NCBI GenBank assembly: GCA_021793235.1
Contig: JAJYTD010000005.1
Location: 1 to 64,000, forward strand
Direction of reading: 5' to 3'
DNA length: 64,000 nt
Source of the DNA: Actinomycetes bacterium
Lineage (GTDB): Bacteria; Actinomycetota; Actinomycetes; Streptosporangiales; Streptosporangiaceae
In this document: positions 34,013 to 60,670 of the stretch, piece by piece
How the letters are laid out: each line of letters opens with the position of its first letter
Numbering within the stretch: position 1 is the first letter of the stretch
Notes under the pieces: generated by a model
Database searches by the model: none
Told to the model about the DNA's origin: nothing
What the model saw: the letters and a program-made list of their open reading frames with translations, nothing else
Program-made: the position numbers and the translations under genes

Positions 34013-34885
34013 TCAGCGGGGCGTCATGTGCCCCATCCGGGTGGAGATCTCCACCGCCGCCTTGTGGACTATCTCGCCGATCGACTCGAGTTTGTCCTCC
34101 TCCATACGGTAGGACGGCCCTGAGGCGCTGAGTGCCGCGATGACCTCGCCGGTGAGGCCGCGGATGGGGGCTGCGACGGCGTTGAGGCCGACCTCGAGCT
34201 CCTCGACCGCGGTGGCGTACCCGCGATCCAGGGTCTCCTCGAGTTCGGCGCGCAGGGTTTCGGGGTCGGTGATCGTGCGGGGGGTGAGCTCCTCCAGCCG
34301 TCCGCGCAGCACCCGGCGCTGGTCGGGTTGGCGCATGTGGGCCAGTAGTACCTTGCCGCTGGAGGTGGAATGGAGGGGGGTCTGTCGACCGATCCAGTTC
34401 TGGCTGACAACGGCCGAGGAGCCGCGCACCTGGTCGATGTTGACGACCATGTCCCCGCTGGGGATGGCGATGTTCACGGTTTCGCCGAGTTCGGCGGCGA
34501 GATCCTCGCACACCCGGCGGCTCTGCTGGGTGAGGTCCAGCCCCGCCGCCATCGTCCCGGCCAGGCGGATGATGCCGAAACCCAACTGGTACTTGCCGCG
34601 CAGTCCCGGCTGTTCGACCAGGCCGCGTCGCTCCAACGCCCCGACCAAGCGAAAGGCCGTCGATTTGTGCACACCCAGCTCGACCGCGATTTCTGTGACA
34701 CCGGCCTCGCCGTGCTGCGCGAGAATCTCCAGCACCGTGATCGCCCGGTCAACTGATTGGACGGGCGCACCATCCTTACCAGGGGCTGTTCGCCCCTGCT
34801 CGGCCTCACCACCCGACCCCCGCTCGATTCGTTCGTAATCCGACGTACTCTGACTCTTTCCTGTGCGGTGGTCGTTGGAAACCAT
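34013..34885 (-). CDS. IclR-family transcriptional regulator
   Basis: A 290-aa IclR protein. The winged HTH is VQSVDRAITVLEILAQHGEAGVTEIAVELGVHKSTAFRLVGALERRGLV. The effector domain has GKYQLGFGIIRLAGTM, STSSGKVLLAHM and a C-terminal GLNAVAAPIRGLTGEVIAALSASGPSYRM. The ATG is chosen over a GTG 9 bp upstream; no clear RBS is present. It follows soxG by 94 bp on the same strand, so it may be the last gene of the sarcosine/dimethylglycine operon or have its own promoter. A perfect 9+9 inverted repeat straddles its start codon. Confidence 0.83.
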   Translation of the reverse strand: MVSNDHRTGKSQSTSDYERIERGSGGEAEQGRTAPGKDGAPVQSVDRAITVLEILAQHGEAGVTEIAVELGVHKSTAFRLVGALERRGLVEQPGLRGKYQLGFGIIRLAGTMAAGLDLTQQSRRVCEDLAAELGETVNIAIPSGDMVVNIDQVRGSSAVVSQNWIGRQTPLHSTSSGKVLLAHMRQPDQRRVLRGRLEELTPRTITDPETLRAELEETLDRGYATAVEELEVGLNAVAAPIRGLTGEVIAALSASGPSYRMEEDKLESIGEIVHKAAVEISTRMGHMTPR

Positions 34886-34894
34886 AACGACCAC
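34868..34894. promoter_or_regulatory. Perfect inverted repeat over the iclR start: GTGGTCGTT-N9-AACGACCAC
   Basis: Two exact 9-bp arms separated by 9 bp, centred within a few bases of the iclR start codon. The position suggests autorepression or a translational hairpin. It differs from the GTTGC-N7-GCAAC palindrome found at the other promoters of this locus. Confidence 0.6.
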
Positions 34895-34979: not shown

Positions 34980-35618
34980 TCAGTTCTGGTCGGCCGCCTC
35001 TGCCGCCACCGCGTCCAGCAGCCAGCGGACCAGGTGGTCGGCGTAGGAGGCCCGGACCAGGATCCGGTAGGCCGGGCCGTCCGCGGCCTCTCCCGCCCGG
35101 TGGATGCCGACAGCGGCCCCGGCGAGCACGGTCTGGGCGTAGTCTCCCGGGCTGAAGACCCGGGGGTGCAGGTCGAGGACACACCCCCGGGCGAGCACGG
35201 CACCGGCCCGCGGGCCGCGCAGCTCCAGTACGGTCCGCTGCGCGGAGACGTCGACGACACTGCCGCACAACGCACCGTACTCACCGCCGAGGGCCGCGGT
35301 CAGTCCGGCGGTGAGGCCGTGCCCGGTGGCGGCCGCGTCCACGACCAGGTACCAGCCCGGCCCGCACCACAGCGTGTACGGGTGGCCGTCGCCGCTCGCG
35401 CGCCCGGGGCCGGGCAGTGCGCAGCCGAGGAATTCCGCGGCCATCCGCGAGGCGGCCTGTGCCTCCTCCGCGTCCACGCGCAGCTCCACCTGCGCCAGGA
35501 GCGGCAGTTCGCGCAGTGCCGCGCAGTCCGCCGAACCGGCCGCTGCGCACTGGTCGGCGAGGTGGGCGACCGGGCTGCGCGGTAGCGGGATCGCGCCCGT
35601 GCGCATCTCATCCGTCAC
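34980..35618 (-). CDS. soxG: Sarcosine oxidase gamma subunit
   Basis: A 212-aa SoxG-like protein. PLPRSPVAHLADQC opens the domain. ELPLLAQVELRV, LPGPGRASG, LWCGPGWYLVVD and VDVSAQRTVLELRGPRAGAVLARGCVLDLHPRVFSPG are typical of heterotetrameric sarcosine oxidase gamma chains, which resemble the GcvT fold. It overlaps the preceding gene by 11 bp. It completes the SoxB-(D)A-G set. Confidence 0.85.
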   Translation of the reverse strand: MTDEMRTGAIPLPRSPVAHLADQCAAAGSADCAALRELPLLAQVELRVDAEEAQAASRMAAEFLGCALPGPGRASGDGHPYTLWCGPGWYLVVDAAATGHGLTAGLTAALGGEYGALCGSVVDVSAQRTVLELRGPRAGAVLARGCVLDLHPRVFSPGDYAQTVLAGAAVGIHRAGEAADGPAYRILVRASYADHLVRWLLDAVAAEAADQN

Positions 35619-38600
35619 GGCGGGCCCCCTCCTTGTCGTAGAACACCGGGTCCGTCACGAGCACCGGAACGGCCTGATCGAGATGGACCGCATACAGCCG
35701 CTCGCCGTGTCGGCCGCGCCCGCCGCGCAGCAGGGCGAGGGCGAAGGAGCGCCCCAGCGCCGCGCTTTCATAGGAGGAGGTGACACGGCCCAGCATCGGT
35801 ACGGGCGCCCGGGAGCGCACCGCTGACGGGCCATCGCCGTCAGGGCGGTGGACGGCCGGCGGGTCGGCCACGATCTGCGCGCCTTCGGCGAGTACGTGGC
35901 CGGTGTCCTCGGGCAGCAGCCCCACCAGCTGCTCCCGGTCCTGGCGCGCGGTATCGGCGCGCCGCAGCGACCGCTTGCCGACGAAGTCCGTGCGCGCGGA
36001 GAACGCCCATTCCAGGCCGACGTCGGCCGGGGTGACACTGCCGTCGGTCTCGTGGCCGACCACGATGAAGCCCTTCTCCGCACGCAGGACGTGCATGGCC
36101 TCGGTGCCGTAGGGGGTGATGCCGAAGGGGCGTCCGGCCTCCAGGACCGCCGTCCACACGTCCGGGCCGTACCAGGCGGGAACATTGATCTCGAAGGTGA
36201 GTTCGCCGGTGAAGCTCACCCTGAGGACGCGCGCCGGCGCTCCGGCCACGGTCGCCTCGCGCGCGGACATGAACGTGAACCCCTCCGCCGACACGTCCAG
36301 CCCAGGGGCGATCCGCTCCATGATGGCGCGGGAACGGGGGCCGACCACGCTGACGGTCGCCCAGTGGTCGGTGACATCGGTGATGTGCACGCACAGGTCC
36401 GGCCACTCCGTCTGCGCCCACTCCTCCAACCAGGCCCGCACCGTTTCGGCATTGCCCGTTGTGGTGGTGACCAGGTACCGGTCGTCGGACAGCCGCACTC
36501 CCACGCCATCGTCGAGGACCATGCCCTCCGCGGTGCACATGACCCCGTAGCGGCATCGGCCGGGTCTGAGGGTGGAGAAGGTCCCGGTGTAGACGCGGTC
36601 CAGGAACGCCCCCGCGTCGCGGCCCGCCACGATCAGTTTGCCGAGCGTGGAAGCGTCCAGCACACCGGCGCTCTCCCGGGCGGCGCGGCACTCGCGCAGC
36701 ACGGCCGCGCGCATGTCCTCGCCGTCGCCGGGGTAGTAGCGGGGCCGTTTCCACTGCCCGACGTCCTCGAACACCGCGCCGTTGGCCGTGTGCCACTCGT
36801 GCATGGGGGTGCGCCGCACCGGATCGAACAGGGAGCCGCGCTCCCGCCCGGCCAGGGCGCTGAACGGGATCGGGGTGCAGGGCGGGCGCGCGGTGGTCGT
36901 GCCGACCTCGTCCATGCCGCGGCCGAGCAGCCCGGCCGTGATTCCGGTGGCCAGTGTTGCGCAGGTACGGCCCTGGTCGGGCCCGGTGCCGATCGTGGTG
37001 TAGCGCTTGATGTGCTCGATGGAGGCCATCCCGGTGTCAAGGGCCGCGCGGATGTCGGCGAGGGTGGCGTCGCGCTGCGGGTCGACGAAGGCCGCCGCTG
37101 TATCGGTGGCGGGGCCGGTGACCGTCCACAGCACCATGGGCGGGGCCGGGTCGTGGAGCCCTCCGCCCGCCGGTGCTCCGTCCCGGTCTGCTGCCGTCCG
37201 CTCAGCGGCACCGCGGGCCTCGTGGCGGGCACCGTCCCCGGTCCCCAGCGCCTCTGCCGCCGCCGCGCGGCCCGCCCGAAGGCCCTCGGTCCGGGCGGCC
37301 TGCGGGTCGCGGGTGCCGGCCGCGGCTCCGACGCACCGGGTGCCCTCGGGCAGCGCGGCGGGCAGGAACGCGGCGTGCTCCGGCGACCACCGCTGCCGCG
37401 CCCCGGCGTGCAGGGCCAGGTCCATTGCCGGGTCGTGCCCACCGGAGACGGCGAGCAGGTCGCATTCGAAGACGCGCTCCGGCCCGGTGGTGCGCCCCCA
37501 CTTGTCGATCGGGGCGGCGGCGACCCCGCTCAACCGCCCGTCCGCCCCGGCTGCGGTGCGGACGATGCCGTATCCACAGAGCACGTCGATGCCGCGTTCG
37601 CGCAGCGCGGCCGCGGGGGCCGTTCCTGCCGTGGGGCGGGCGTCGACCGCAGCCGCGATCGTGACCCCGGCATCGTGCAGGTCCACGGCCGACCACAGCG
37701 CCTCGTCGCCGCAGCCGAACACCGCGGCGCGCCGCCCCGGAAGGACACCGTGGCGCCAGGTGTAGCGCACGGCCGCGCCGGCGGACATGACGCCGGGCCG
37801 GTCGTTTCCCTCGAACGCGATCGGCCGCTCGACCGCGCCCGTCGCCACGATGACGCCGCGGGCCCGGATGTGCCAGAGGCGGTGCGCGGCGGCGCCGCGG
37901 CGTCCGGCGGCGGGGCGGCGCTCCAGGGCGATGAGTTCACCGTGGTCGTAGTGCCCGGTGACGGTGGTGCGCATCAGGACGCGCACGTCCGGTGTTCCGG
38001 CGAGCGCCGCGGCGGTGTCGGACGCCCATTGCCCCGCGGGCCGGCCGTCGATCCGGCGCCGCGCGCCGGGAAGGCGGCCGCCCGGGCCGGGCCGGTCGTC
38101 GGCGAGGATGACGCGCGCCCCGGCTTCTGCCGCGGCCTGTGCCGCCGCGAGTCCGGCGGGCCCGGCTCCGGCGACGAGCACGTCGCAGTGCGCCCACATC
38201 GTGTCGCCGGTGGGCGCCTCGCGCGCCTCGGGAAGCGCCGCGAACCCGGCGAGGCCCGCGGCGCGCAGGCCGTCGTGCACCTCCACGCGTGTGGCCTGCA
38301 CCATGGCCTCGCCGGGGGGCGAGTCCACCCGCACGTACGCGCAGGGCTCCTCCGCGCCGTCGCTGAAGACCCCGCGGGGCCGCCCCGTGTAGGTGCCGGC
38401 CGCGATCGTGTGCACACCGTTGGCGAGCAGTGCCGCGGACAGCGGTTCGCCCTCGTAGGCGGGAAGTTCTCGGCCGTCGAAGAGGATCGTGACCCGTCTG
38501 CCCCGCGCGGCGCCGTGCCGTCGGCCCGCTTCCTCGGCGCTTTCGTCGGGTCCCGTGCCCAGGGCCCCGTTGTCGTCGGGGCGGGCGGGGTCCGGCTCGG

Positions 38601-39027
38601 GGGGGACGACCCCTCGTTCAATTCCACCCGCTCCGGCATCCGCGCGGCCATTGCGCCCGTCCGCCTGTGGAGGGCCGGTCCGGGATGCGGTAGCGGCGTC
38701 CTGGGGCGGTGCTGGATCTGCGAAGGGCCCGGCCTCTGCGGAGGCGCCGTTTCCCTCTTCTGCGGTGAGGCCGCCGGGCGGGGCCGATGCCGTGATGCGG
38801 TTGTCGACCGTGTTCCGCCGGACGTCGCACCAGCGCCGGCAACCGAAGGTATGGAACCAGCGCTCGGCGAAGGGGCCTTCGGGGTTGTCCCGGACGAACA
38901 GGTACCGGGCCCAGTCGGTGTCCGCCAGCGCCCACGGGTCCTCCGGGTGGGCGATCCCGGCCTGGCCACCGTAGCGGAACTCGGCTTCGTCGCGGGGTCC
39001 GCACCACGGGCAGGGGATGAGCAGCAC
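35608..39027 (-). CDS. soxA: Fused sarcosine oxidase delta-alpha subunit (SoxD-SoxA)
   Basis: A 1139-aa fusion. Residues 1-80 are a complete SoxD: zinc ligands Cys6 and Cys9 (CPWCG), His59 and Cys63 (FHTFGC). An Ala/Pro/Gly-rich linker of ~95 residues follows. From ~175 on it is SoxA, with a ferredoxin-like strand region (VTILFDGRELPAYEGEPLSAALLANG), a dinucleotide fold (VAGAGPAGLAAA, ~286-297), TFSTLRPG, and a C-terminal THF-binding GcvT-like domain (~750-1139, with GVLDASTLGKLIVAGRDA). Subunits are normally encoded separately in the order B-D-A-G; here D and A are one chain in the expected gene order. The product should oxidise sarcosine to glycine with methylene-THF and H2O2. Confidence 0.9.
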   Translation of the reverse strand: MLLIPCPWCGPRDEAEFRYGGQAGIAHPEDPWALADTDWARYLFVRDNPEGPFAERWFHTFGCRRWCDVRRNTVDNRITASAPPGGLTAEEGNGASAEAGPFADPAPPQDAATASRTGPPQADGRNGRADAGAGGIERGVVPPEPDPARPDDNGALGTGPDESAEEAGRRHGAARGRRVTILFDGRELPAYEGEPLSAALLANGVHTIAAGTYTGRPRGVFSDGAEEPCAYVRVDSPPGEAMVQATRVEVHDGLRAAGLAGFAALPEAREAPTGDTMWAHCDVLVAGAGPAGLAAAQAAAEAGARVILADDRPGPGGRLPGARRRIDGRPAGQWASDTAAALAGTPDVRVLMRTTVTGHYDHGELIALERRPAAGRRGAAAHRLWHIRARGVIVATGAVERPIAFEGNDRPGVMSAGAAVRYTWRHGVLPGRRAAVFGCGDEALWSAVDLHDAGVTIAAAVDARPTAGTAPAAALRERGIDVLCGYGIVRTAAGADGRLSGVAAAPIDKWGRTTGPERVFECDLLAVSGGHDPAMDLALHAGARQRWSPEHAAFLPAALPEGTRCVGAAAGTRDPQAARTEGLRAGRAAAAEALGTGDGARHEARGAAERTAADRDGAPAGGGLHDPAPPMVLWTVTGPATDTAAAFVDPQRDATLADIRAALDTGMASIEHIKRYTTIGTGPDQGRTCATLATGITAGLLGRGMDEVGTTTARPPCTPIPFSALAGRERGSLFDPVRRTPMHEWHTANGAVFEDVGQWKRPRYYPGDGEDMRAAVLRECRAARESAGVLDASTLGKLIVAGRDAGAFLDRVYTGTFSTLRPGRCRYGVMCTAEGMVLDDGVGVRLSDDRYLVTTTTGNAETVRAWLEEWAQTEWPDLCVHITDVTDHWATVSVVGPRSRAIMERIAPGLDVSAEGFTFMSAREATVAGAPARVLRVSFTGELTFEINVPAWYGPDVWTAVLEAGRPFGITPYGTEAMHVLRAEKGFIVVGHETDGSVTPADVGLEWAFSARTDFVGKRSLRRADTARQDREQLVGLLPEDTGHVLAEGAQIVADPPAVHRPDGDGPSAVRSRAPVPMLGRVTSSYESAALGRSFALALLRGGRGRHGERLYAVHLDQAVPVLVTDPVFYDKEGARRDG

Positions 39028-39047: not shown

Positions 39048-40247
39048 TCAGTGCGCGACCGCCGCCGCGCCGTGCTCGTCGACCAGCGCCCCGCTGGTGA
39101 AGCGGTCGAGCCCGAACGGCGCCGCCAGCGGGTGCGGCCGGTCGTGGGCGATGGTGTGGGCGAAGACGTGGCCGGCGCCGGGTGTGGCCTTGAACCCTCC
39201 GGTCCCCCAGCCGCAGTTGATGTAGAGCCCGGGAAACGGGGTGAGTCCGATGATCGGTGAGGCGTCGGGAGTGACGTCGACGATCCCGCCCCAGCTCCGC
39301 AGCAGGTGGGCGTGGGCGAAGATCGGGAACAGGGCGACGCCCGCGGCGATCTGGTGCTCGATCGTACGGAAGGATCCGCGCCGCCCGTACCCGTTGTAGG
39401 CGTCGATCCCGGCGCCCATGACGAGTTCGCCCTTGTCCGCCTGGCTCACGTACACGTGCACGGTGTTGGACATGACGACGGTGTCGATCACCGGTTCCAA
39501 GAGTTCGGTCACCAGTGCCTGCAAGGGGTGGCTCTGCAGCGGGAGGCGCAGGCCGAGGGTGTCGGCGAGCACCGAGGTGTGGCCCGCGGCGCACAGCGCG
39601 ACCCGCCCCGCTGCGATGGGGCCGCGTGTGGTGTGCACGCCGACGACGGTGTCGCCGCGCATGTGGAAGCCGGTGACCTCGCAGTTCTCCACGAGGTGCA
39701 CGCCGAGCCGGTCGGCGGCCGACGCGAAGCCCCACGCCACCCTGTTGTGCTCGGCGATCCCGGCCCGCGGTTGGTAGGTGGCGCCCATGACCGGGTAGCG
39801 CAGGCCGGGCCCGGTGTCGAGGATCGGGACGAGCTTGCCGACCTCCTCGGGGCCGAGCCACTCGGCGTCGATGCCGTTGAGCCGGTCGGCGTTGACCCGG
39901 CGCACGGATTCGCGTACGTCGTGGGTGGTGTGGGCGAGGTTGAGCACCCCTCGCTGGCTGAACCGCAGGTCGCGTTCGAGTTCGTCCTCCAGCCCCTCCC
40001 ACAGCCGCAGGGCGTGCTCGTAGATGCCCGCGCTGGCGTCCCACAGGTAGTTGGAGCGGATGATGGCGGTGTTGCGCGCCATGTTCCCGCCGGCCAACCA
40101 GCCGCGCTCCAGGACCGCGACGTCGGTGATGCCGTGCTCGCGGGCGAGGTAGTAGGCGGTGGCCAGCCCGTGTCCGCCGGAGCCGACGATGACGGTGTCG
40201 TAGTGGCTCCGCGGCTCCCGAGAGCGCCATCCCTGGGCGGCGGTCAT
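39048..40247 (-). CDS. soxB: Sarcosine oxidase beta subunit
   Basis: A 399-aa DAO-family flavoprotein. The FAD Rossmann motif is [17 protein letters not shown] (19-35). [24 protein letters not shown] (48-70) and [15 protein letters not shown] follow; His167 there is a candidate for the covalent FMN link known in SoxB. The C-terminus [18 protein letters not shown] is the usual flavin-site ending. It overlaps the upstream dimethylglycine oxidase gene by 4 bp (ATGA) and is 20 bp before the soxD-soxA fusion. Confidence 0.92.
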
Positions 40248-42718
40248 GTGCGCACCCTCTTCATCTCCGGGTCGTACAGGGGGTCGGTGGCGGCGGTGGC
40301 GGGGACGCGGCGGCCGAAGTAGCCGATCTCCAGCGCGGTACCCGGGTCGCCGAGGTCGGCGGGCAGCCAGGCGTAAGCGATCCCGGTGCCGATCGTGTAG
40401 CCGTATCCGGCGCTGGTGACATAGCCCGCGGCGGAGGCGGAGCCGGGGGCGTACACGGGTTCGCCGCCCATGACCGTCCCGTCGGGGTCGGCGACGGTCA
40501 GGCAGGTGAGCCGGTGCCGCACCGTGTCGGGGTCGTGGGCTTCGAGCGCGCCGCGCCCGATGAAGTCGTCCTTGTCGAACCGGACCGCGAAATCGAGTCC
40601 GGCTTCGTAGGGGCCGTGCTCATCGGTCATGTCCGTGCCGAACGCCCGGTAGCCCTTCTCCAGCCGGAGGCTGTTGAACGCGCCCCGCCCGGCCGCGATC
40701 GCGCCCAGGGGGCGCCCGGCCTGCCAGAGCGTGTCCCACAAGCACAATCCCAGGTCGGGGGTGGTGTAGAGCTCCCAGCCGAGTTCGCCGACGTAGGAGA
40801 CCCGCAGGGCCAGTACTGGAACGTCGCCGACGTGCATGCGGGCGCAGCGGAAGTAGCGCAGCCCGTCGTTGGTCAGGTCGTGGTCGGCCAGCGGCTGCAC
40901 GAGGTCTCTGGCGAGCGGCCCCCACACCCCGATGCAGGTGGTCTGCGGTGTGATGTCGCGGACCTGGACCGTTGCGTCGGCCGGCAGGTGGCGGCGGAGC
41001 CAGTCGAGGTCGAGAGGGCTGTTCACGCCGACCTGGAAGTAGTCGTCGTGTACTCGGGCGACGGTGATGTCGCCGCGCAGCCGGCCGCGTTCGTCGAGCA
41101 TCAGGCAGTAGCTCACGGCTCCGGGCGGCCGGTGGGCGCGGCCGGTGGTCATGCGGTCCAAGAACGCCGCGGCGCCGGGGCCGGTCACCTCCAGCCGCAT
41201 CAGCGACGACATGTCGTACAGCGCGACGCATTCCCGGGTGATCTGGGCCTCGGCTCCGATGGTCGTCGACCAGTACCGTGCGGCCCAGGGGCCCGGCGCG
41301 GGGATGTCGCGTCCTTCGGCCAGCCCGGCGTTGGTCTCGTACCAGTGCGGCCGCTCCCAGCCGGACGCCTCCAAGTGGAAGGCGCCCAGTTCCTGCTGGC
41401 GCTGGTAGAAGGGGGCGACGCGCAGCGGCCGGGGTTTCTCCATCGGCTGCAGCGGGTGCAGTGCGTCGTAGACCTCGACGAAGTTCTGGCAGTCGCGCTC
41501 CAGCAGGTAGCCGGGTGCGAGCTGGTGCGGGTGGAACCGGTTGATGTCGCACCCGGTCAGATCGAACGTCGATGCCCCGTCCACGATCCATTCGGCAACG
41601 GCCCGCGCCACCCCGGCCGAGTGCGTGATCCACACGGCCTCGGCCGCCCAGAAGCCCTCCACCTGGTCGGACTCTCCCAGCAGCGGCATGTTGTCCGGGG
41701 TGAAGGAGAACAGTCCGTTGAAGCCCTCCGCGATGTCGGCCGCTCCCAGGCCCGGGAGCAGGCGGATGCTGTCCTCCCATGCCGGTGCGAAATCGTCCGG
41801 GGTGAAGGGCAGCATCGACGGCATCGGCCGGTCGGTCGTGCTGTCGGGGGTGCCGATGTCGGCGGCGTCGATCGGCATGGGGCGGTGGCCGTAGTAGCCC
41901 ACACCAATGCGGTCGCCGCGTTCGCGGTAGTAGAGGTCGCGCTCCTGGTAGCGCAGGATCGGGTGGCGTACCAGTGCGTCCGCCCCGGCAAGAGCGGGGA
42001 CGGGTCCGGTCCAGGCGAACTGGTGCGCGAGCGGGGTGAGCGGGAGCGTCATCCCGACCATCGCGGCGATGCGCGGCCCCCACATCCCGGCGCAGGAGAC
42101 CACGATGTCGGCGCCGATCCGTCCCTGGTCGGTGACGATCCCGGTGACGCGGCCGCCGCGGGTTTCGATGTCGAGCACCTCGTGCCGCGGCAGAAAGCGC
42201 GCGCCGCGCCTGATGGCCGCTTCGGCCTGGGCACGGGCCGCGCGCAGGGCGTCGGCCAGTCCGTCGGTGGGGGTGTGCAGCCCGCCGAGGATTCGGTCTG
42301 CCTCGACAAGAGGGTGCGCCGCGGCGCACTCCTGCGGTCCGATCACGTGGGCGGGGATGCCCCATGAGTGCGCCCAGCCGCACCTACGGTGCAGCTCGTC
42401 GAGGTGTTCGGGGGTGGCGGCGAGTTCCAGGCCGCCCACTGGGGAGAAACAGAACCGGCCGCCCGACCGCAGTTCGTTGTATTTGCGCACGGTGTAGCGG
42501 GCGAAGTCGGACATGACCTTGGTGGCGTTGGTCTGGAATACGAGTCCGGGCGCGTGGGAGGTCGAACCTCCGGTGCGGTACAGGTCCCCTTGGTCGACCA
42601 CGGTGACGTCGGTGTACCCGCGCGCTGTGAGCTCGTCGGCCAGCGCGCAGCCGACGATGCCGGCACCGATCAGCACGATTTCGGGGACGGTCACAGGAGC
42701 GGAACGGGGAGCAGCCAT
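40244..42718 (-). CDS. dmgO: Dimethylglycine oxidase (FAD + THF domains)
   Basis: An 824-aa two-domain enzyme closely resembling Arthrobacter dimethylglycine oxidase. The N-terminal DAO domain has [17 protein letters not shown] (14-30), [15 protein letters not shown] (50-64) and [18 protein letters not shown]. The C-terminal GcvT-like domain carries [33 protein letters not shown] and the ending [12 protein letters not shown]. It demethylates dimethylglycine to sarcosine, trapping the methylene group on THF. First gene of the minus-strand operon dmgO-soxB-soxDA-soxG, whose promoter lies next to palindromes shared with purU. Confidence 0.92.
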
Positions 42719-42778: not shown

Positions 42779-42891
42779 AGGATCCGTCGCATGGGAGGCG
42801 GCGTCAAGGAGCCGCGCGGATCTGATTCAGACGGGTCCGGCATCTTGACGAACCATCAATCTTCGCCGCACTGTTTCACATAGAAGGACTT

Positions 42892-42908
42892 GTTGCCCAT
42901 AGCGCAAC
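42892..42908. promoter_or_regulatory. Palindrome GTTGCCCATAGCGCAAC upstream of purU
   Basis: Perfect GTTGC/GCAAC arms with a 7-bp spacer, 14 bp before the purU start codon and overlapping its leader. Same pattern as at 45226-45242 and 45317-45333. A TTGACG at 42845-42850 is a possible -35, without a convincing -10. Confidence 0.65.
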
Positions 42909-42922
42909 TACCAGGAGGCGAC

Positions 42923-43804
42923 ATGGCCGACACCAGCACCGCACCGAATCCCGGACGTGACTACATCCTCACGCTCGACTGCCCGGACCGGCCCGGCACC
43001 GTGCACGCGGTGACGGAGTTCCTGCTCCTCCACCGCGTGCACATCGTGCACAGCCAGCAGTTCAACGACCGTGAGCGCGGGCGCTTCTTCATGCGGCTGC
43101 ACATGGAAGCGCTGGATCCCGCCTACGGACTGGGCGAGCTGACCCAGGCCTTCGGGCCGCTCGCCGAGGCCTACGCGATGTCCTGGCACCTGTTGGACGC
43201 CGCGACCCGCACCCGCACCCTGATCCTGACGTCCCGGTACGAGCACTGCCTCAACGACCTGCTGTTCCGCCGCCGACTGAGCATGATGCCCATCGACGTC
43301 CCGCTGGTCGTCGCCAACCATCCGGACACCGCCGAACTGGTCGCCTCCTACGGGGTGGAGTTCCGCCATATTCCGGTGACGCCGGAGACCAAAGCCGACG
43401 CCGAGGCCGAACTGCTGAAGCTGATCGAGGACTTCCAGATCGACCTGGTGGTACTCGCCCGCTACATGCAGATCCTCTCGCCCGAATTGTGCAAGCGCCT
43501 GGAAGGCCGGGCGATCAACATCCACCACTCGTTCCTGCCCGGCTTCAAGGGCGCGAGCCCGTACCGGCAGGCGCACACGCGCGGTGTCAAACTCATCGGC
43601 GCGACCGCCCACTATGTGACCCCGGATCTGGACGAGGGGCCCATCATCGAACAGGACGTGGTGCGGGTCGACCATTCCATGGACCCCGCGCGCTTGGCTG
43701 CCATCGGCCGGGACGTGGAGGCCCAGGTGCTGGCCCGCGCGGTGCGCTGGCACAGCGAGCACCGGATCCTGCTCAACGACGGCCGCACGGTGGTGTTCAC
43801 CTGA
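42923..43804 (+). CDS. purU: Formyltetrahydrofolate deformylase
   Basis: A 293-aa PurU. The N-terminal ACT domain (ILTLDCPDRPGTVHAVTEFLL) is followed by a formyltransferase-fold domain. Its catalytic set is INIHHSFLPGFKGASPY (Asn/His near 199-202) and DLDEGPIIEQDV (Asp near 237). It hydrolyses 10-formyl-THF to formate and THF. AGGAGG precedes the ATG; an in-frame ATG 33 bp upstream lacks this. Next to THF-dependent demethylases its role is probably to recycle THF when C1 units are in excess. Confidence 0.92.
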   Translation: MADTSTAPNPGRDYILTLDCPDRPGTVHAVTEFLLLHRVHIVHSQQFNDRERGRFFMRLHMEALDPAYGLGELTQAFGPLAEAYAMSWHLLDAATRTRTLILTSRYEHCLNDLLFRRRLSMMPIDVPLVVANHPDTAELVASYGVEFRHIPVTPETKADAEAELLKLIEDFQIDLVVLARYMQILSPELCKRLEGRAINIHHSFLPGFKGASPYRQAHTRGVKLIGATAHYVTPDLDEGPIIEQDVVRVDHSMDPARLAAIGRDVEAQVLARAVRWHSEHRILLNDGRTVVFT

Positions 43805-43849: not shown

Positions 43850-45130
43850 TCACCCGGTGGTCAGACTGTCGGCGGCCAGGCCGTCGGTGGCCAGGCCGTC
43901 GGTGGCCAGGCCGTCGGCAGCCAGGCTCTCGGCGGCCAGGCCCCGCAGGTCCTGCTTGGGCACGGCCTTCTGGGGATCGACGAACGGCTTTTCCACGACC
44001 GTCCCCGTCACCACGCCGTCGGGGCGCTCCACGGCGAACTCGGTCCCCAGTGCGGCCAGTTCGATCGGCACCATCGCGAACCCGACGTTCTTCTCCAGCT
44101 TCGGGGAGAAGCACGCCGACGTGACCTTGCCGACCGCTGCTTCCTCATCCGGCAGCCGGACCGGGAAGAAGTCGATCATCGACCCGTCGTTGTAGCTTCC
44201 CAACGGCGTCCCGCCGATCTCCAGGCCGACGAGCTTGCGGTCGATACCCGTGTCGCGGATCCGCGTGAGCGCCTCCTTGCCGACGAAGTCGGCCTCCTGC
44301 TCCAGGTCGACCATCCAGCTCACCTCGTAGCCGTAGCCGACCTCGAAGGGGTTGGTGTCCAGCCCGATGTCGCAGCCCCAGGCCAGGATGCCCCCCTCGA
44401 TCCTGCGGATGTGGCAGGGTCCGATGACCTCGATCCCGTGCGGGGTCCCGGCCTCGATCACCCTGTCCCACAGCTTGACGCCGTCGCGGGAGGCGTTGCG
44501 CAGGTAGATCTCGAAGCCGAGTTCCGAGGTGTAGCCGGTACGCGAGACGACCACGTCCATACCGTCCAGCTCGTACTCGGCGCAGTAGTAGTAGGGGATG
44601 TCCAGGACGCGCTCGCCGAACAGGTCGACCATGACATCGCGCGACTTGGGCCCCTGCACCTGCACCGGGCCGACGTCGGCCTCGCGGATCGTCACGTCCA
44701 GACCGCTGTTGTAGGCCAGGCCCTGGGCCCACAGCAGGACATCGCTGTCGGCCAGCGACAGCCAGAAGTGGTTCTCGCCCAGGCGCAGCAGCACCGGGTC
44801 GTTGATGATGCCGCCGTCAGGCGCGGTGATGAACACGTACTTGCACTGCCCGACCTTGCATTTGTTGAGGTCGCGCGGCACCAGCATGTTGGTGAAGGTG
44901 AACGCGTCAGGTCCGGTGATCTCGACCTGGCGCTCCACTCCGACGTCCCACAGGGTCACACCGTTGAGCAGGTGCCAGTATTCGGCCACCGGATCGCCGT
45001 AGTGCCGCGGGTGGTAGGTGTGGTTGTACACGCTGTACTTGGCCACGCCGTGTCGGCGCGAGGCGTAGAAGTACGGGGATTTCCGGATCCGCGAGTAGAG
45101 CAGGATCTCTGGGTTCTCGATGACGGCCAT
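43850..45130 (-). CDS. DmdA/GcvT-like tetrahydrofolate-dependent demethylase
   Basis: A 426-aa aminomethyltransferase-fold protein. Its N-terminal half (RIRKSPYFYASRRHG, YSVYNHTYHP, LWDVGVERQVEI, LVPRDLNKCKVGQCKYV, WLSLADSDVLLWAQGL) follows DMSP demethylase DmdA and the LigM-type O-demethylases much more closely than GcvT of the glycine cleavage system. Such enzymes move a methyl group from a methylated substrate to THF, giving 5-methyl-THF. The start is the ATG preceded by GGAGG; ATG/TTG codons up to 45154 are alternatives. The last ~30 residues are a degenerate (A/T)DGLA pentapeptide repeat. The divergent methylene-THF reductase genes would reoxidise methyl-THF. Substrate unproven: glycine betaine, another methylated amine, DMSP or a methoxy-aromatic. 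Confidence 0.78.
   Translation of the reverse strand: MAVIENPEILLYSRIRKSPYFYASRRHGVAKYSVYNHTYHPRHYGDPVAEYWHLLNGVTLWDVGVERQVEITGPDAFTFTNMLVPRDLNKCKVGQCKYVFITAPDGGIINDPVLLRLGENHFWLSLADSDVLLWAQGLAYNSGLDVTIREADVGPVQVQGPKSRDVMVDLFGERVLDIPYYYCAEYELDGMDVVVSRTGYTSELGFEIYLRNASRDGVKLWDRVIEAGTPHGIEVIGPCHIRRIEGGILAWGCDIGLDTNPFEVGYGYEVSWMVDLEQEADFVGKEALTRIRDTGIDRKLVGLEIGGTPLGSYNDGSMIDFFPVRLPDEEAAVGKVTSACFSPKLEKNVGFAMVPIELAALGTEFAVERPDGVVTGTVVEKPFVDPQKAVPKQDLRGLAAESLAADGLATDGLATDGLAADSLTTG
43868..43942. repeat. 15-bp minisatellite in the demethylase C-terminus (5 units)
   Basis: Five tandem 15-bp units of GTCGGYGGCCAGGCC; two are identical and the others have 1-3 changes. Read on the minus strand they encode a pentapeptide of the form LA(T/A)DG. 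The array sits just inside the stop codon, so unit number could vary without affecting the catalytic domain. Confidence 0.85.
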
Positions 45131-45225
45131 CTGGTCCTCCATCACTTGGTGCAACGAGGATCGCCATACGCAACAGAGCGTCCCTTTTCCATGAGGGCGC
45201 TGTCAAGGGACGAGACGGCACGTTG

Positions 45226-45856: not shown

Positions 45857-46849
45857 GTGTCCTACCCGTCCCGCCCGCCTGCCGACGCCGCGCCCGTCAC
45901 CGGATCTCCGCGCGGCGACCTGGCGGACCTGCTCGCCGATCCGGCTGCGCACGGCCCCGTCATCACCGCGGAGTGCCCCGCGGTCGACAGTGGCGGGATC
46001 TCCGCCGTCGCCGCGCATGTGGCCCGCCTCGCGCCCCACGCCGACGCGATCAACGCCACCGACAACCCGGCCGCGCGTGCCCACGTCTCCAACGTGGCCA
46101 TGGCCATCGCCATCAAGCAGCTCGGCGCCCAGCCGATCCTGCAAGTGGCCTGCCGCGACAAGAACCGCCTCGCGCTGGAGGCCGACATCGTCGGCGCCGC
46201 GCTCCACGGCATCACCGCCGTCTGCTGCATGACCGGCGACGACGTGACGGCCGGCGACGAACCCGAGGCGCGCCGGGTGTTCGACCTCGACTCACCGCAA
46301 CTGATCCGCGCCGCCTCGTCGCTGGCCAAGGGCTGCTACCTGTCCGGACGCGCGCTCGATCCCGCTCCCCCGCTGTTCATCGGGGCGGTGGAGAACCCGG
46401 CGGCGCCGCCGTTCGCCTACCGGGTGCGCCGCGGGCTGAAGAAGGCCGCGGCGGGGGCGCGCTTTCTGCAACTGCAGATCTGCTACCACCCCGACCGGCT
46501 CGCCGAGTTCGCCGAACTGGCCCGCGACTCCGGACTGACGCCCCGGGTGGCCCTGCTGCCGACCATCGCCCTGCTGAAAGGCTCCCGGGCGCTGCGTTAC
46601 ATGACCGCCAACGTCCCCGGCATCCATATCCCCGAACCGGTGATCGAGCGGGTGGAGAACGCCGCCGACCCGGGCGAGGCCGCCTATCGGCTGGCCCTGG
46701 AGCAGGCCGAGCACGCACTGTCCCTGCCCGGGGTGCGCGGCCTGCACATCGCCGACTTCCGGCACGACGACACCATCGCCCGCCTGCGCTCCGATCTGGG
46801 GCTGCCCGCCGCACACAGCGCACCGGACACCGACGCGCTCACCGTTTGA
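45857..46849 (+). CDS. Methylenetetrahydrofolate reductase, catalytic subunit (MetF-like)
   Basis: A 330-aa TIM-barrel MTHFR. GPVITAECPAVDSGG opens the barrel. ADAINATDNPAARAHVSNVAMA, QVACRDKNRLALEADIVGAALHGI, CCMTGDD and RFLQLQICYHPDRLAEF are typical of the divergent MetF forms that occur with MetV. GTG start with AAGGAG upstream. In this setting it probably runs in the oxidative direction, 5-methyl-THF to methylene-THF, coupled to the demethylase (inference). Confidence 0.82.
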   Translation: MSYPSRPPADAAPVTGSPRGDLADLLADPAAHGPVITAECPAVDSGGISAVAAHVARLAPHADAINATDNPAARAHVSNVAMAIAIKQLGAQPILQVACRDKNRLALEADIVGAALHGITAVCCMTGDDVTAGDEPEARRVFDLDSPQLIRAASSLAKGCYLSGRALDPAPPLFIGAVENPAAPPFAYRVRRGLKKAAAGARFLQLQICYHPDRLAEFAELARDSGLTPRVALLPTIALLKGSRALRYMTANVPGIHIPEPVIERVENAADPGEAAYRLALEQAEHALSLPGVRGLHIADFRHDDTIARLRSDLGLPAAHSAPDTDALTV

Positions 46850-57157: not shown

Positions 57158-59623
57158 TCACTCCTCCACTCGCGATGACGCCACGGCCGTCGGACCGCCG
57201 CGGGTCCGGGCGCTACCGTCCGGTGGCGCGGAGGCACCGATCACGGGCGCGGGGGCATAGGTTCCGTTCGCGTTGGCGGCCTTGGCCACACGAACGGCGG
57301 CGACCTTGAACAGCGGCTGCTTGGAGACGGGGTCCCAGTCGGTGAGGGTCAGTTCGTTGGCCGCACGCTCCGGTTCCTGTGGTGCCGCCGCCTCGCCTTT
57401 GTCCCAGTAGCCGTAGTGGAAGGGCACGAAGACGGTCCCCTGGCGGGTTCCGCAAACGCGCGCCCTGGCCTTCAGCGCTCCTCTCGGCGAGGTGATGCGC
57501 AGCACGTCGCCTTCTGCCACGCCCAGCGCCTGCGCGTCCAAGGGGTGCAGCTCCGCCCAGACCTCCGGGGCCGCGTCCTGCAGTTGCGGTGCCCGACCGG
57601 TCTTGGTCCGGGTGTGGAACTGGTAGACCGTCCGCCCGGTCGTCAACGTGAACGGATACCGCTCATTGGGGACCTCCGGTGAGGGCTGGTACTCCGCGGA
57701 GTGCAGGAAGGCCCGGCCCGCGGGGGCCTTGGCCCGGTAGTCCGCCTCGGTGTGGACCGCTCCGGTGACCATGTCGTGGCCGAAGGTCTCGCAGTAGTCG
57801 GGGTCGGTGTTGAAAACCCCGTCGGAATAGAGGCGCTCCAGGCCATCGGGGTGCCGGTCATTGCACGGCCACTGGATGCCGCTCCCGCCGCGCAGGCGCT
57901 CGTAGGTGATCCCCGTGTAGTCGCAGGGCCGTCCCCGCGTGCATTCCTTCCATGCCTCGAACGCCGATTCGGGGTCGTCCCAGGTGATCAGCGGTGCCCC
58001 GTCCTTGTTCCGGAAGTCCATACGCCGCGCGTAGTCGAGGAAGATGTCCAGGTCCGAGCGCGCCTCACCGGGTGGTTCCACGGCCTTATCGGAGATGTGC
58101 ACGGTGCGGTCGACACAGGTGAAGGTACCGAGCTTCTCGCCCCACGTCGCGGCGGGAAGGACCACGTCGGCCAGGCGCGCCGTCTCGGTTAGGAACAGGT
58201 CCTGGACGACGAGGAAGAGGCCCTCCTTGGCGAGGATGTCGCGGATGCGGGACAGCTCCGGCAGGGACACCGCCGGGTTGGTCGCCGAGACCCACAGGAG
58301 TTTGATCGACCCCTGCTCCGCGTAGCGAAAGATCTGCATGGCGTGGGTCGGGGCCGCCCAGTGCGGGATCTTCTGCCGGTCCACGTTCCACAACCGGGCG
58401 AGTTCTTCGATGTGGTCGGGGTTCTCCCAGTTCCGCAGGCCGGGCAGGTCTCCATCGGCCCCGGTCTCCCGGGTGTTCTGCGCCGTGGGCTGCCCGTTCA
58501 TCTGGTAGATGCCGGCCCCCGGACGTCCGATCATGCCGCGGATGAGGTGCAGGTTGTTCACCATGCACGCGGCCACCGTGGCCTGGTTCGACTGGTAGAA
58601 GCCCTGCAGGACCGTTGAGACGAGCCGCTGCGCGGTGCCCAGGATCCGCGCGGCCTCCTGGATGTCCTCCACCGAGACGTCGCAGATGTCGGCGACCAGC
58701 TCGGGCGGGTAGGCCTCGACCACAGAGCGCAATTCGTCGAATCCGAGGGTGTGGTCGCGCACGTAGTCGGCGTCGTACCAGCCGTTGACGATCAGCTCCC
58801 GCAGCAGGCCGTTCATCAGCGCCTGGTTGGTGCCCGGGCGCACCGCGAGGTGCACGTCGGCCTCATCGGCCACAGGTGTACGGCGCGGGTCGACCACGAC
58901 CATCTTCGGCGGCTCAGGGCCGCGGCGGCGGTCGAGCATGCGCATCCACAGCACCGTCTGGGTTTCGGCGACGTTGTGGCCGAACAGCGCCAGGGCATCG
59001 CAGTGATCGATGTCGATGTAGGATCCCGGCTGCCCGTCGGTGCCGAAGCTGGCCTTGAGGGACGCCGCCGCCGTGGCCGTGCACAGGCGGGTGTTGCCGT
59101 CCATGTGCGGGGTGCCGATCCCGGCTTTTCCGATGACGCCCAGCGTGTAGTACTCCTCCAGGAACAACTGGCCGGTGGTGTAGAAGCCGAAGTGCCCCCA
59201 TCCGCCCGGACCCTCGCCGAGCAGGTCCTGGGATCGGGACACGATCCGGTCCATCGCCGTGTCCCAGTCGGTTTCGACGAGTTCGCTGCCCTCGCGCACG
59301 AGAGGCCGGGTCAGCCGGTCGGGGCTGTTGACGGCCTGCCATCCGTAGAGGTCCTTGGGGTCGAGCCGCCCGTGGTTGATGCGGTCGACCGCCCGGCCGC
59401 GGACGCCGACGATCCGACCGTCCTTGACGCCGATGTCCATGGCGTCGCCGTTGGAGTGCAGGATGGAGGCGGACCGGAACCACGCGTCCACCTCCTCCTC
59501 GCCGATGGAGTCGTCCAGGAAGGCGTCCACGCGCACGGGCCACGGATCGCCCGGGCCGTAGGGGGTCCGCTCGCCCCATACATCCGCGATGCGGTCGGAA
59601 AGGTGTCGGGATGCAGCGCACAT
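57158..59623 (-). CDS. Molybdopterin oxidoreductase lacking the N-terminal [4Fe-4S] cysteines
   Basis: An 821-aa enzyme of the DMSO reductase superfamily. The Mo-bisPGD domains are clear: DWDTAMDRIVSRSQDLL, GFYTTGQLFLEEYYTLG, DGNTRLCTATAAASLKASFGTDG, HCDALALFGHNVAETQTVLWMRM, VDPRRTPVADEADVHLAVRPGTNQALMNGLL, and a C-terminal molydopterin-binding domain (FTLTTGRTVYQFHTRTKTGRAPQL, RITSPRGALKARARV). Where formate/nitrate enzymes have C-x2-C-x3-C, this protein reads RSASILHSNGDAMDIGVKDGRIVGVRGRAVDR, with no cysteine. Electron transfer therefore differs from the norm. Substrate unknown. The start has no strong RBS. Confidence 0.82.
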   Translation of the reverse strand: MCAASRHLSDRIADVWGERTPYGPGDPWPVRVDAFLDDSIGEEEVDAWFRSASILHSNGDAMDIGVKDGRIVGVRGRAVDRINHGRLDPKDLYGWQAVNSPDRLTRPLVREGSELVETDWDTAMDRIVSRSQDLLGEGPGGWGHFGFYTTGQLFLEEYYTLGVIGKAGIGTPHMDGNTRLCTATAAASLKASFGTDGQPGSYIDIDHCDALALFGHNVAETQTVLWMRMLDRRRGPEPPKMVVVDPRRTPVADEADVHLAVRPGTNQALMNGLLRELIVNGWYDADYVRDHTLGFDELRSVVEAYPPELVADICDVSVEDIQEAARILGTAQRLVSTVLQGFYQSNQATVAACMVNNLHLIRGMIGRPGAGIYQMNGQPTAQNTRETGADGDLPGLRNWENPDHIEELARLWNVDRQKIPHWAAPTHAMQIFRYAEQGSIKLLWVSATNPAVSLPELSRIRDILAKEGLFLVVQDLFLTETARLADVVLPAATWGEKLGTFTCVDRTVHISDKAVEPPGEARSDLDIFLDYARRMDFRNKDGAPLITWDDPESAFEAWKECTRGRPCDYTGITYERLRGGSGIQWPCNDRHPDGLERLYSDGVFNTDPDYCETFGHDMVTGAVHTEADYRAKAPAGRAFLHSAEYQPSPEVPNERYPFTLTTGRTVYQFHTRTKTGRAPQLQDAAPEVWAELHPLDAQALGVAEGDVLRITSPRGALKARARVCGTRQGTVFVPFHYGYWDKGEAAAPQEPERAANELTLTDWDPVSKQPLFKVAAVRVAKAANANGTYAPAPVIGASAPPDGSARTRGGPTAVASSRVEE

Positions 59624-59812
59624 GGCGCCGCCGCTGCCCGGATCGACCGAAGATATGCGTGGGGCGGGGCATCGCTCACCGCGGATCCCACCGGGAAGGA
59701 GGCGAAGGAGCCGCCCGGTCCGGAATCCGGTCCGGAGTCCGCCCGGGACCGTGGACGCTGTTGCCTGTGGAGCGGCCGTTGGGGCCGCCCCGATGCGAGA
59801 GGAGAGCGGTAC

Positions 59813-60535
59813 ATGCCGATCGAGAACGGGATCGAACGGGCGCTGGTCGTCATGGCCCACCCGGACGACGTCGACTTCGGCTGCGCGGGGACGGTCGCGC
59901 TGTGGACCGACGCCGGAGTCGACGTCACCTACCTTCTGGTCACCGACGGTGAAGCGGGAGGCGGCAATGGGGCGGTTCCGGCAGGCCCGGAGCTGGCCGA
60001 AGTTCGGCGTACCGAGCAGCGGGAGGCGGCCGCCGCCGTCGGCGTGCACGATGTCCGCTTCCTCGGCCGCCCGGACGGCCGCCTGGCAGCGGATATGGGA
60101 CTGCGCCGCGACATCGCGCGGGTCATCCGCCAGGTCCGCCCACAGCGCATGCTCATTCCCAGCCCGGAACGCGACTGGACGGCGATCGCCGCGAGCCACC
60201 CCGACCATCTGGCAACGGGCGAGGCCGCGATCAACGCGGTCTACCCCGATGCGCGCAATCCCTATGCCCACCCGGAGCTTCTCGCGGAGGAAGGCCTGGA
60301 GCCCTGGACCGTGCGGGAGGTGTGGCTGACACACGGGCGCTTTCCCGACCACTACTCCGATGTCACCGATGTGGTCGACCGCAAGCTGACCGCCCTTGCC
60401 GCGCACGCCAGCCAGATCGGCGATGTCGGTGAACTGGGCGCCATGGTGCGCGGCTGGCTGGCGGCCAACGCCGAAAAGGGCGGTCTTGCTCAGGGGCGAC
60501 TCGCCGAGGTGTTCCAGGTCGTCGACACGCGTTGA
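59813..60535 (+). CDS. PIG-L/MshB-family zinc deacetylase
   Basis: A 240-aa LmbE-like amidase. Zinc motif AHPDD (15-19, VVMAHPDDVDFGCAGTVALW), LLVTDGEAGGGNG, REAAAAVGVHDVRFLGRPDG and the second His motif SHPDHLATGEAA are all present. The C-terminal HASQIGDVGELG is typical of actinobacterial members acting on GlcNAc-linked substrates. Divergent from the oxidoreductase; AGGAGAG precedes the ATG. Confidence 0.85.
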   Translation: MPIENGIERALVVMAHPDDVDFGCAGTVALWTDAGVDVTYLLVTDGEAGGGNGAVPAGPELAEVRRTEQREAAAAVGVHDVRFLGRPDGRLAADMGLRRDIARVIRQVRPQRMLIPSPERDWTAIAASHPDHLATGEAAINAVYPDARNPYAHPELLAEEGLEPWTVREVWLTHGRFPDHYSDVTDVVDRKLTALAAHASQIGDVGELGAMVRGWLAANAEKGGLAQGRLAEVFQVVDTR

Positions 60536-60670
60536 GGCCTGCCGATCCGCGGACCAGCGTGTTCCCGCGCGATCATCGGTGGCGAGAAGCAGCGCCGTCC
60601 GATAATCGTGGGGTAGCGGGGAGGAGATCCCCGATACCGCCGATGACACCGACGACACCAGGAGGACCGC

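What the first reader, a model, noticed from the sequence alone, without database searches (positions are those of the whole stretch)
35608..39027. SoxD fused to SoxA through a long flexible linker
Residues 1-80 contain the complete delta-subunit zinc set (Cys6, Cys9, His59, Cys63), followed by ~95 Ala/Pro/Gly-rich residues and then a full-length SoxA. Heterotetrameric sarcosine oxidases normally have four separate chains. This would make a three-chain enzyme with an alpha-delta fusion in the usual gene order.
Basis: seen in the sequence. Interest (0 to 1): 0.6.

Follow-up and report, generated by a model that had tools for sequence, protein, structure and literature searches.

The report
Two sarcosine-oxidase subunits fused together
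In this actinobacterium the small zinc-binding piece and the largest piece of a four-piece enzyme that breaks down sarcosine are encoded as one long protein joined by a floppy linker, a merger that has arisen more than once in related bacteria and is therefore real but not extraordinary.

Summary
Window 39027..35608 (-) is one 1,139-aa reading frame: SoxD (aa 1-82, zinc-ligand set intact), 94 Ala/Gly/Pro-rich residues, then full-length SoxA. No in-frame ATG/GTG/TTG lies between codons 1 and 205, so SoxA has no ordinary start of its own. No single substitution in the linker region (0 of 927) would hide a normal stop/start pair; 135 of 1,545 single-base indels, all bases missing from the assembly, could, but giving an unusually long SoxD and SoxA N-terminus.

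The fusion is not unique. Of 123 soxD-soxA places read (117 distinct SoxA), 36 are fused: 32 in Streptomycetaceae or in that tree clade, Gordonia tangerina, a SoxD-SoxA-SoxG triple fusion, one ambiguous case, and the window. A single origin is rejected (p = 4e-7). In the window's own order fusion is rare, and its 13 clade neighbours on the tree have separate genes. AlphaFold leaves the linker unstructured.

Best reading: a TSOX-type sarcosine oxidase made as three chains (beta, delta-alpha, gamma). A new variant of a known enzyme; modest interest.

The parts
35608..39027 (-). soxDA fusion gene, 1,139 aa, GTG start
38782..39027 (-). SoxD (delta) domain, aa 1-82, with Cys6/Cys9/His59/Cys63
   Evidence: Pfam PF04267 105.5 bits; aligned with 1vrq_D and 2gag_D
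38500..38781 (-). linker, aa 83-176, Ala/Gly/Pro-rich, predicted disordered, no in-frame ATG/GTG/TTG
   Evidence: pLDDT under 50 for aa 88-169; no tandem array, only weak short matches elsewhere in the genome
35608..38499 (-). SoxA (alpha) part, aa 177-1139: Fer2_4, Pyr_redox_2, A3, GCV_T, GCV_T_C
   Evidence: 1vrq_A E 1.6e-249
39048..40247 (-). soxB (beta subunit, flavoprotein), upstream partner
   Evidence: TIGR01373 607 bits, cut-off 529; 3ada_B E 1.1e-193
34980..35618 (-). soxG (gamma subunit); as listed its start overlaps the end of soxDA by 11 bases
   Evidence: PF04268 42.9 bits, cut-off 21
40244..42718 (-). dimethylglycine/sarcosine dehydrogenase-like protein (DAO, FAO_M, GCV_T, GCV_T_C), overlaps soxB by 4 bases
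34013..34894 (-). IclR-type regulator downstream of soxG
42890..43804 (+). PurU-like formyl-tetrahydrofolate deformylase (Formyl_trans_N over its cut-off; ACT 26.7 bits, just under 27)

Best explanation
The gene encodes a working alpha subunit of a heterotetramer-type sarcosine oxidase with the delta subunit fused to its N-terminus by a 94-residue flexible leash; with SoxB and SoxG it forms a complex built from three chains instead of four. Chemistry is expected to be the ordinary one (recalled from the TSOX literature): SoxB oxidises the N-methyl amine at FAD, electrons pass to FMN and oxygen, and the C-terminal folate domain of SoxA takes the one-carbon unit as methylene-tetrahydrofolate. 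SoxD is expected to sit where the free delta subunit sits, the leash fixing a 1:1 ratio without taking part in catalysis. Shown: one frame, intact domains and zinc ligands, no separate SoxA start, recurrence in other lineages, predicted disorder of the linker. Inferred: assembly, activity, substrate, and that no protease cuts the leash. The fusion probably arose in this lineage after the split from its nearest sampled relatives, by loss of the soxD stop in frame with soxA and lengthening of the spacer.
For: Single frame and domains; zinc ligands; no start codon between codons 1 and 205; 36 of 123 soxD-soxA places fused, 14 of the 36 with no start codon anywhere in the linker; at least 6 changes of state on a 117-row tree and 5 on a 29-row tree, and rejection of a single fused clade, p-AU 4.4e-7; linker aa 88-169 at pLDDT under 50, 520 of 1,139 residues at 90 or more, in the SoxA part by the block means; complete soxB-DA-G set with PurU-like, GcvT-like and dimethylglycine-dehydrogenase-like neighbours.
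Against: NCBIfam scores of SoxA (1,063 of 1,164 needed), SoxD (100.1 of 116.5) and SoxG (91.6 of 143.95) lie below the curated cut-offs, so substrate identity is unsure. Linker codon usage is weak: the reading frame scores -0.03 per codon against 0.26-0.31 in the flanking domains, and one reverse frame scores slightly higher, 0.05. The SoxD part of the model has only middling confidence (block means 52-77). The window's genus holds one genome only, so the fusion could not be seen in a second strain. Among 129 genomes of the order with SoxD, only the window and G221 proved fused of the three with a frame over 1,000 codons. A single base missing from the assembly is not excluded. No protein evidence.
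Confidence: 0.83

Rival explanations
1. Assembly error: one base is missing from the linker, and soxD and soxA are really two overlapping genes.
For: 135 of 1,545 simulated single-base indels in codons 76-178, all insertions, give both a soxD stop and a soxA start. The 13 other rows of the window's clade on the tree have separate genes.
Against: 0 of 927 substitutions do so. In 123 of the 135 cases soxD would be 136 aa (129-176 in the other 12), against 79-126 aa in 86 of 87 separate soxD genes (the 87th, L128, has an in-frame stop at its Cys9 codon), and the nearest soxA start would lie 42 or more aa before the Fer2 domain, against 6-23 aa for the nearest upstream ATG in 61 of the 69 separate genes that have one. 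Fusions recur elsewhere.
Confidence: 0.06
2. The fusion is made but cut in the linker after translation, so that the enzyme is still a four-chain complex.
For: An exposed, unstructured stretch of about 80 residues is an easy target for proteases (inference).
Against: No positive evidence; the linker has few large hydrophobic residues. No processing signal was looked for.
Confidence: 0.08
3. A decaying gene: the stop was lost by drift and the complex no longer works.
For: Low third-position G+C in the linker; three subunits score below NCBIfam cut-offs.
Against: All domains are full-length and open; SoxB aligns over nearly its whole length with solved beta subunits; the window's clade as a whole is divergent, and fused Streptomyces genes show a similar drop in the linker.
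Confidence: 0.03

Closest known systems
Heterotetrameric sarcosine oxidase (TSOX), PDB 1vrq/1x31/3ad7-3ada and 2gag/2gah
   Same: SoxB, SoxA and SoxD recognisable by sequence against solved chains, SoxG by Pfam; SoxA domain order; zinc ligands
   Different: Delta and alpha are separate chains there (99 and 964-965 aa); here one chain with a 94-residue linker
SoxD-SoxA fusions of Streptomyces, Streptantibioticus, Actinacidiphila and Gordonia tangerina (loci L058, L080-L095, L112, L115, L121, L129, L136, L154, L180-L189)
   Same: Same domain order, linker of 49-152 residues, often no start codon for SoxA
   Different: Different linker sequences and different places in the SoxA tree; independent origin likely
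Separate soxD and soxA of the nearest relatives (G154, G020, G006, G108, G017, G197, G007 and Nocardiopsis loci)
   Same: Same clade of the SoxA tree, up to 73% identity over its columns
   Different: soxD ends with its own stop; soxA in another frame except in L163

Membership tests
Heterotetrameric sarcosine oxidase | SoxB flavoprotein subunit with the conserved histidine that carries FMN (role of the residue recalled) | tested here: met
   TIGR01373 607 bits over cut-off 529; His in GIAEHN aligns with His in GIAKHD of 3ada_B/1vrq_B
Heterotetrameric sarcosine oxidase | SoxA domain order Fer2_4, Pyr_redox, A3, GCV_T, GCV_T_C | tested here: met
   but TIGR01372 score 1,063 is under its cut-off 1,164
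Heterotetrameric sarcosine oxidase | SoxD with Cys6, Cys9, His59, Cys63 (zinc role recalled) | tested here: met
   but TIGR01374 score 100.1 is under its cut-off 116.5
Heterotetrameric sarcosine oxidase | SoxG subunit beside soxA | tested here: met
   PF04268 over cut-off; but TIGR01375 91.6 is under its cut-off 143.95
Heterotetrameric sarcosine oxidase | Gene order soxB-D-A-G | tested here: met
   order SoxBDAG named in PMC3691474 (passages seen)
Heterotetrameric sarcosine oxidase | Four separate chains | tested here: not met
   At the gene level delta and alpha are one reading frame without a start for SoxA; so it belongs to the enzyme family by homology but is not a literal heterotetramer
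Heterotetrameric sarcosine oxidase | Oxidation of sarcosine with H2O2 or methylene-THF formed | not testable with these tools
   needs the purified enzyme

The most novel reading that the evidence does not exclude
Subunit boundaries of sarcosine oxidase have dissolved again and again in Actinomycetota: delta-alpha fusions arose at least four times, alpha-gamma fusions exist as well, and in one relative (G221, locus L057) delta, alpha and gamma are all one 1,306-aa chain, leaving a two-chain enzyme. The window is one step on that path, and the disordered leash is kept because delta must stay bound to alpha for assembly.
Probability: 0.6. Interest if true: 0.4.

Novelty: new variant of a known kind. 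Interest (0 to 1): 0.3.

Why it matters
Natural fusions show which subunits of this enzyme tolerate being joined and give ready-made constructs for a simpler sarcosine oxidase, an enzyme type used in creatinine and sarcosine assays (use recalled). Several fusions with unlike linkers, and a triple fusion in L057, make it testable whether the delta subunit acts only as a tethered structural part. It also warns that counting SoxD and SoxA as separate genes can miss a subunit that is present but fused.

Tried and rejected
Linker as a repeat: no tandem array; in its own genome only the place itself plus three weak matches of about 30-45 bases. Rejected.

Linker related to the small gene that lies between soxD and soxA in some Nocardiopsis: the DNA alignment over the spacer with L078 and L079 is weak and the window's translations show nothing like it by eye. 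Not pursued.

Open-frame length as a proxy for fusion: G228 has a 1,140-codon frame, but its soxD ends at 92 aa and soxA is in another frame, so only places whose DNA I read are counted as fused. G1036 (L171), with 1,643, is separate too. L063 and L067 (G501, G512), with long frames, were held too short to judge.

G361 (L069) is counted as fused by frame, but its linker is Arg-rich, repetitive and holds in-frame ATG codons before SoxA, so it may be two genes in one frame.

Plasmid records: 884 records match; among the 25 listed, none of the annotated ones shows a fused product name, alpha and delta being listed apart. The other 859 were not seen.

Literature: searches listed no paper whose title or abstract start points to a SoxD-SoxA fusion; the library is open-access only and the papers were not read through, so this does not show it is unpublished. 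Seen: passages of PMC3691474 and PMC13188914 (unrelated); all others as search listings only.

Rows dropped: of 84 loci, L120 and L124 gave no usable soxD-soxA pair; rows with identical SoxA went in the tree once (117 of 123); the second tree used 29 of the 117 rows, chosen by me, without the ambiguous L069. Not done: a structure search with the model.
Full report
What is there. The minus-strand frame 39027..35608 starts with GTG, has a stop two codons upstream and runs 1,139 codons. hmmscan places SoxD at aa 3-80, Fer2_4 at 177-256, Pyr_redox_2 at 282-542, the A3 domain at 646-728, GCV_T at 742-1008 and GCV_T_C at 1033-1131. The SoxD part aligns with solved delta subunits 1vrq_D and 2gag_D with Cys6, Cys9, His59 and Cys63 kept; the SoxA part aligns with 1vrq_A from residue 9 to its end. 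Between them are 94 residues, 51 of them Ala, Gly or Pro.

Is SoxA made separately? Between codon 1 and codon 205 there is no in-frame ATG, GTG or TTG; codon 205 lies inside the Fer2 domain. A separate full-length SoxA therefore has no ordinary start.

Could it be a sequencing error? I changed every base of codons 76-178 in turn. None of 927 substitutions restores both a soxD stop and a soxA start (18 give a stop only, 21 a start only). Of 1,545 single-base indels, 135 do, all of them insertions, that is, a base missing from the assembly. In 123 of these soxD would have 136 residues, longer than in any separate gene read (79-126 aa in 86 of 87; the other, L128, has an in-frame stop at its Cys9 codon), and SoxA would start 42 or more residues before Fer2, whereas the nearest upstream ATG lies 6-23 residues before it in 61 of the 69 separate genes that have one. 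The error is possible but would leave an odd pair of genes. An open frame of this length is itself not surprising in this DNA: 59% of simulated 94-codon stretches stay open. Linker codon usage is weak and its third-position G+C low, as in other fused linkers.

Is it seen elsewhere? SoxD (PF04267) was sought in the window's own genome, 60 relatives, 297 genomes of the order, 396 of the phylum, 295 of the genus of G057 (Streptomyces, judged by its place in the tree among named Streptomyces) and 11 of the genus of G221, and the window's first 261 residues in 341 genomes of the family. In the order 129 of 297 genomes have SoxD, but only three places have frames over 1,000 codons: the window, G221 (fused) and G228 (not fused). 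In the Streptomyces genus 51 of 99 SoxD matches lie in frames of 1,070 codons or more. I read 11 of these in full and all 11 are fused; of the places with frames under 600 I read 7 and none is fused. In all, 123 soxD-soxA places were read, 117 with distinct SoxA, since some genomes appear under two locus numbers: 36 fused (34 distinct proteins), 87 separate. These places were picked partly because they looked fused, so 36 of 123 is not a frequency. In 14 of the 36 the linker has no start codon at all. Fused linkers are 49-152 residues long.

One origin or several? On a FastTree tree of 117 SoxA rows (34 fused) the fewest changes of state are 6. The window sits with 13 other rows, all separate, in a clade at support 100 that includes Nocardiopsis. 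On a 29-row tree with a mixture model (5 changes), holding all 8 fused rows together is rejected (p-AU 4.4e-7). Within Streptomycetaceae a clade of the 5 fused rows tested is also disfavoured (p 0.0165), so there may be further gains or losses. Counted cautiously, the window, G221 (L057), Gordonia tangerina (L121) and Streptomycetaceae are separate cases; G361 (L069) is ambiguous.

Other junctions. L057 carries SoxD, SoxA and SoxG in one 1,306-residue frame, confirmed by Pfam. SoxA-SoxG fusions with soxD separate were confirmed by Pfam in L102, L127, L140 and L156 (in L127 the SoxG score, 21.1 bits, is just over the cut-off of 21) and look the same by eye in L118, L155 and L178.

Structure. 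AlphaFold2 on a 42-row alignment gives mean pLDDT 79.5 and pTM 0.76. Residues 88-169 are under 50; 520 residues are at 90 or more; the SoxD part has block means of only 52-77, so where SoxD docks is not settled. No structure search was run, because sequence already identifies the family.

Surroundings. Upstream are soxB and, overlapping it by 4 bases, a dimethylglycine-dehydrogenase-like gene; downstream are soxG (11-base overlap as listed) and an IclR regulator. Beyond lie PurU-like, GcvT-like and MTHFR-like genes and, further on, a molybdopterin oxidoreductase. This fits demethylation of betaine-type compounds with handling of the one-carbon units (inference); PMC3691474 (passages) describes TSOX genes packed with glyA and purU in Corynebacterium and the SoxBDAG operon in Colwellia. 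The scores of SoxA, SoxD and SoxG under NCBI's cut-offs mean that sarcosine itself as substrate is likely but not shown.

Verdict. The observation and the interpretation stand. The arrangement is a recurrent variant of a known enzyme rather than a one-off. The searches of the open-access library listed no paper on it, which is not proof that none exists.

Noticed in passing
L057:2270-6190: SoxD, SoxA and SoxG are one 1,306-aa frame in G221, so this relative may make sarcosine oxidase from two chains.
   Followed up: partly
L102:4747-8082, L127:5246-8500, L140:5284-8805, L156:5240-8557 (also L118, L155, L178): SoxA fused to SoxG with soxD separate, in Nonomuraea, other actinobacteria and a gammaproteobacterial MAG (for the first four; by eye for the rest).
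   Followed up: partly
L078:5342-5551, L163:1683-1886, L175:1654-1878, and L079: Four Nocardiopsis-type loci carry a small gene (67-74 aa where measured) between soxD and soxA, its ATG overlapping the soxD stop, with conserved stretches like ARREWCGxPDL and PAQRIRDRRRR; their SoxD has extra C-terminal cysteines. Possibly a further small subunit.
   Followed up: no
L128:91-150: soxD of an Actinomycetes MAG has an in-frame TGA where the zinc ligand Cys9 stands in the others; a sequencing error, a broken gene or a recoded codon.
   Followed up: no
linkers of L080, L083, L085, L087, L092, L094, L129, L154 and others: Many Streptomyces linkers share a recurring stretch like ARPAFEDEA or PGVPPLGEFEDEA of unknown meaning.
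   Followed up: no
L069:2784-6152: G361 has SoxD and SoxA in one frame through an Arg-rich repetitive stretch; SoxA could start at an internal ATG.
   Followed up: partly
window 43850-45154 (-), 45857-46849 (+), 57158-60658 (-): GcvT-like, MTHFR-like and molybdopterin-oxidoreductase genes near the operon, consistent with one-carbon metabolism.
   Followed up: no
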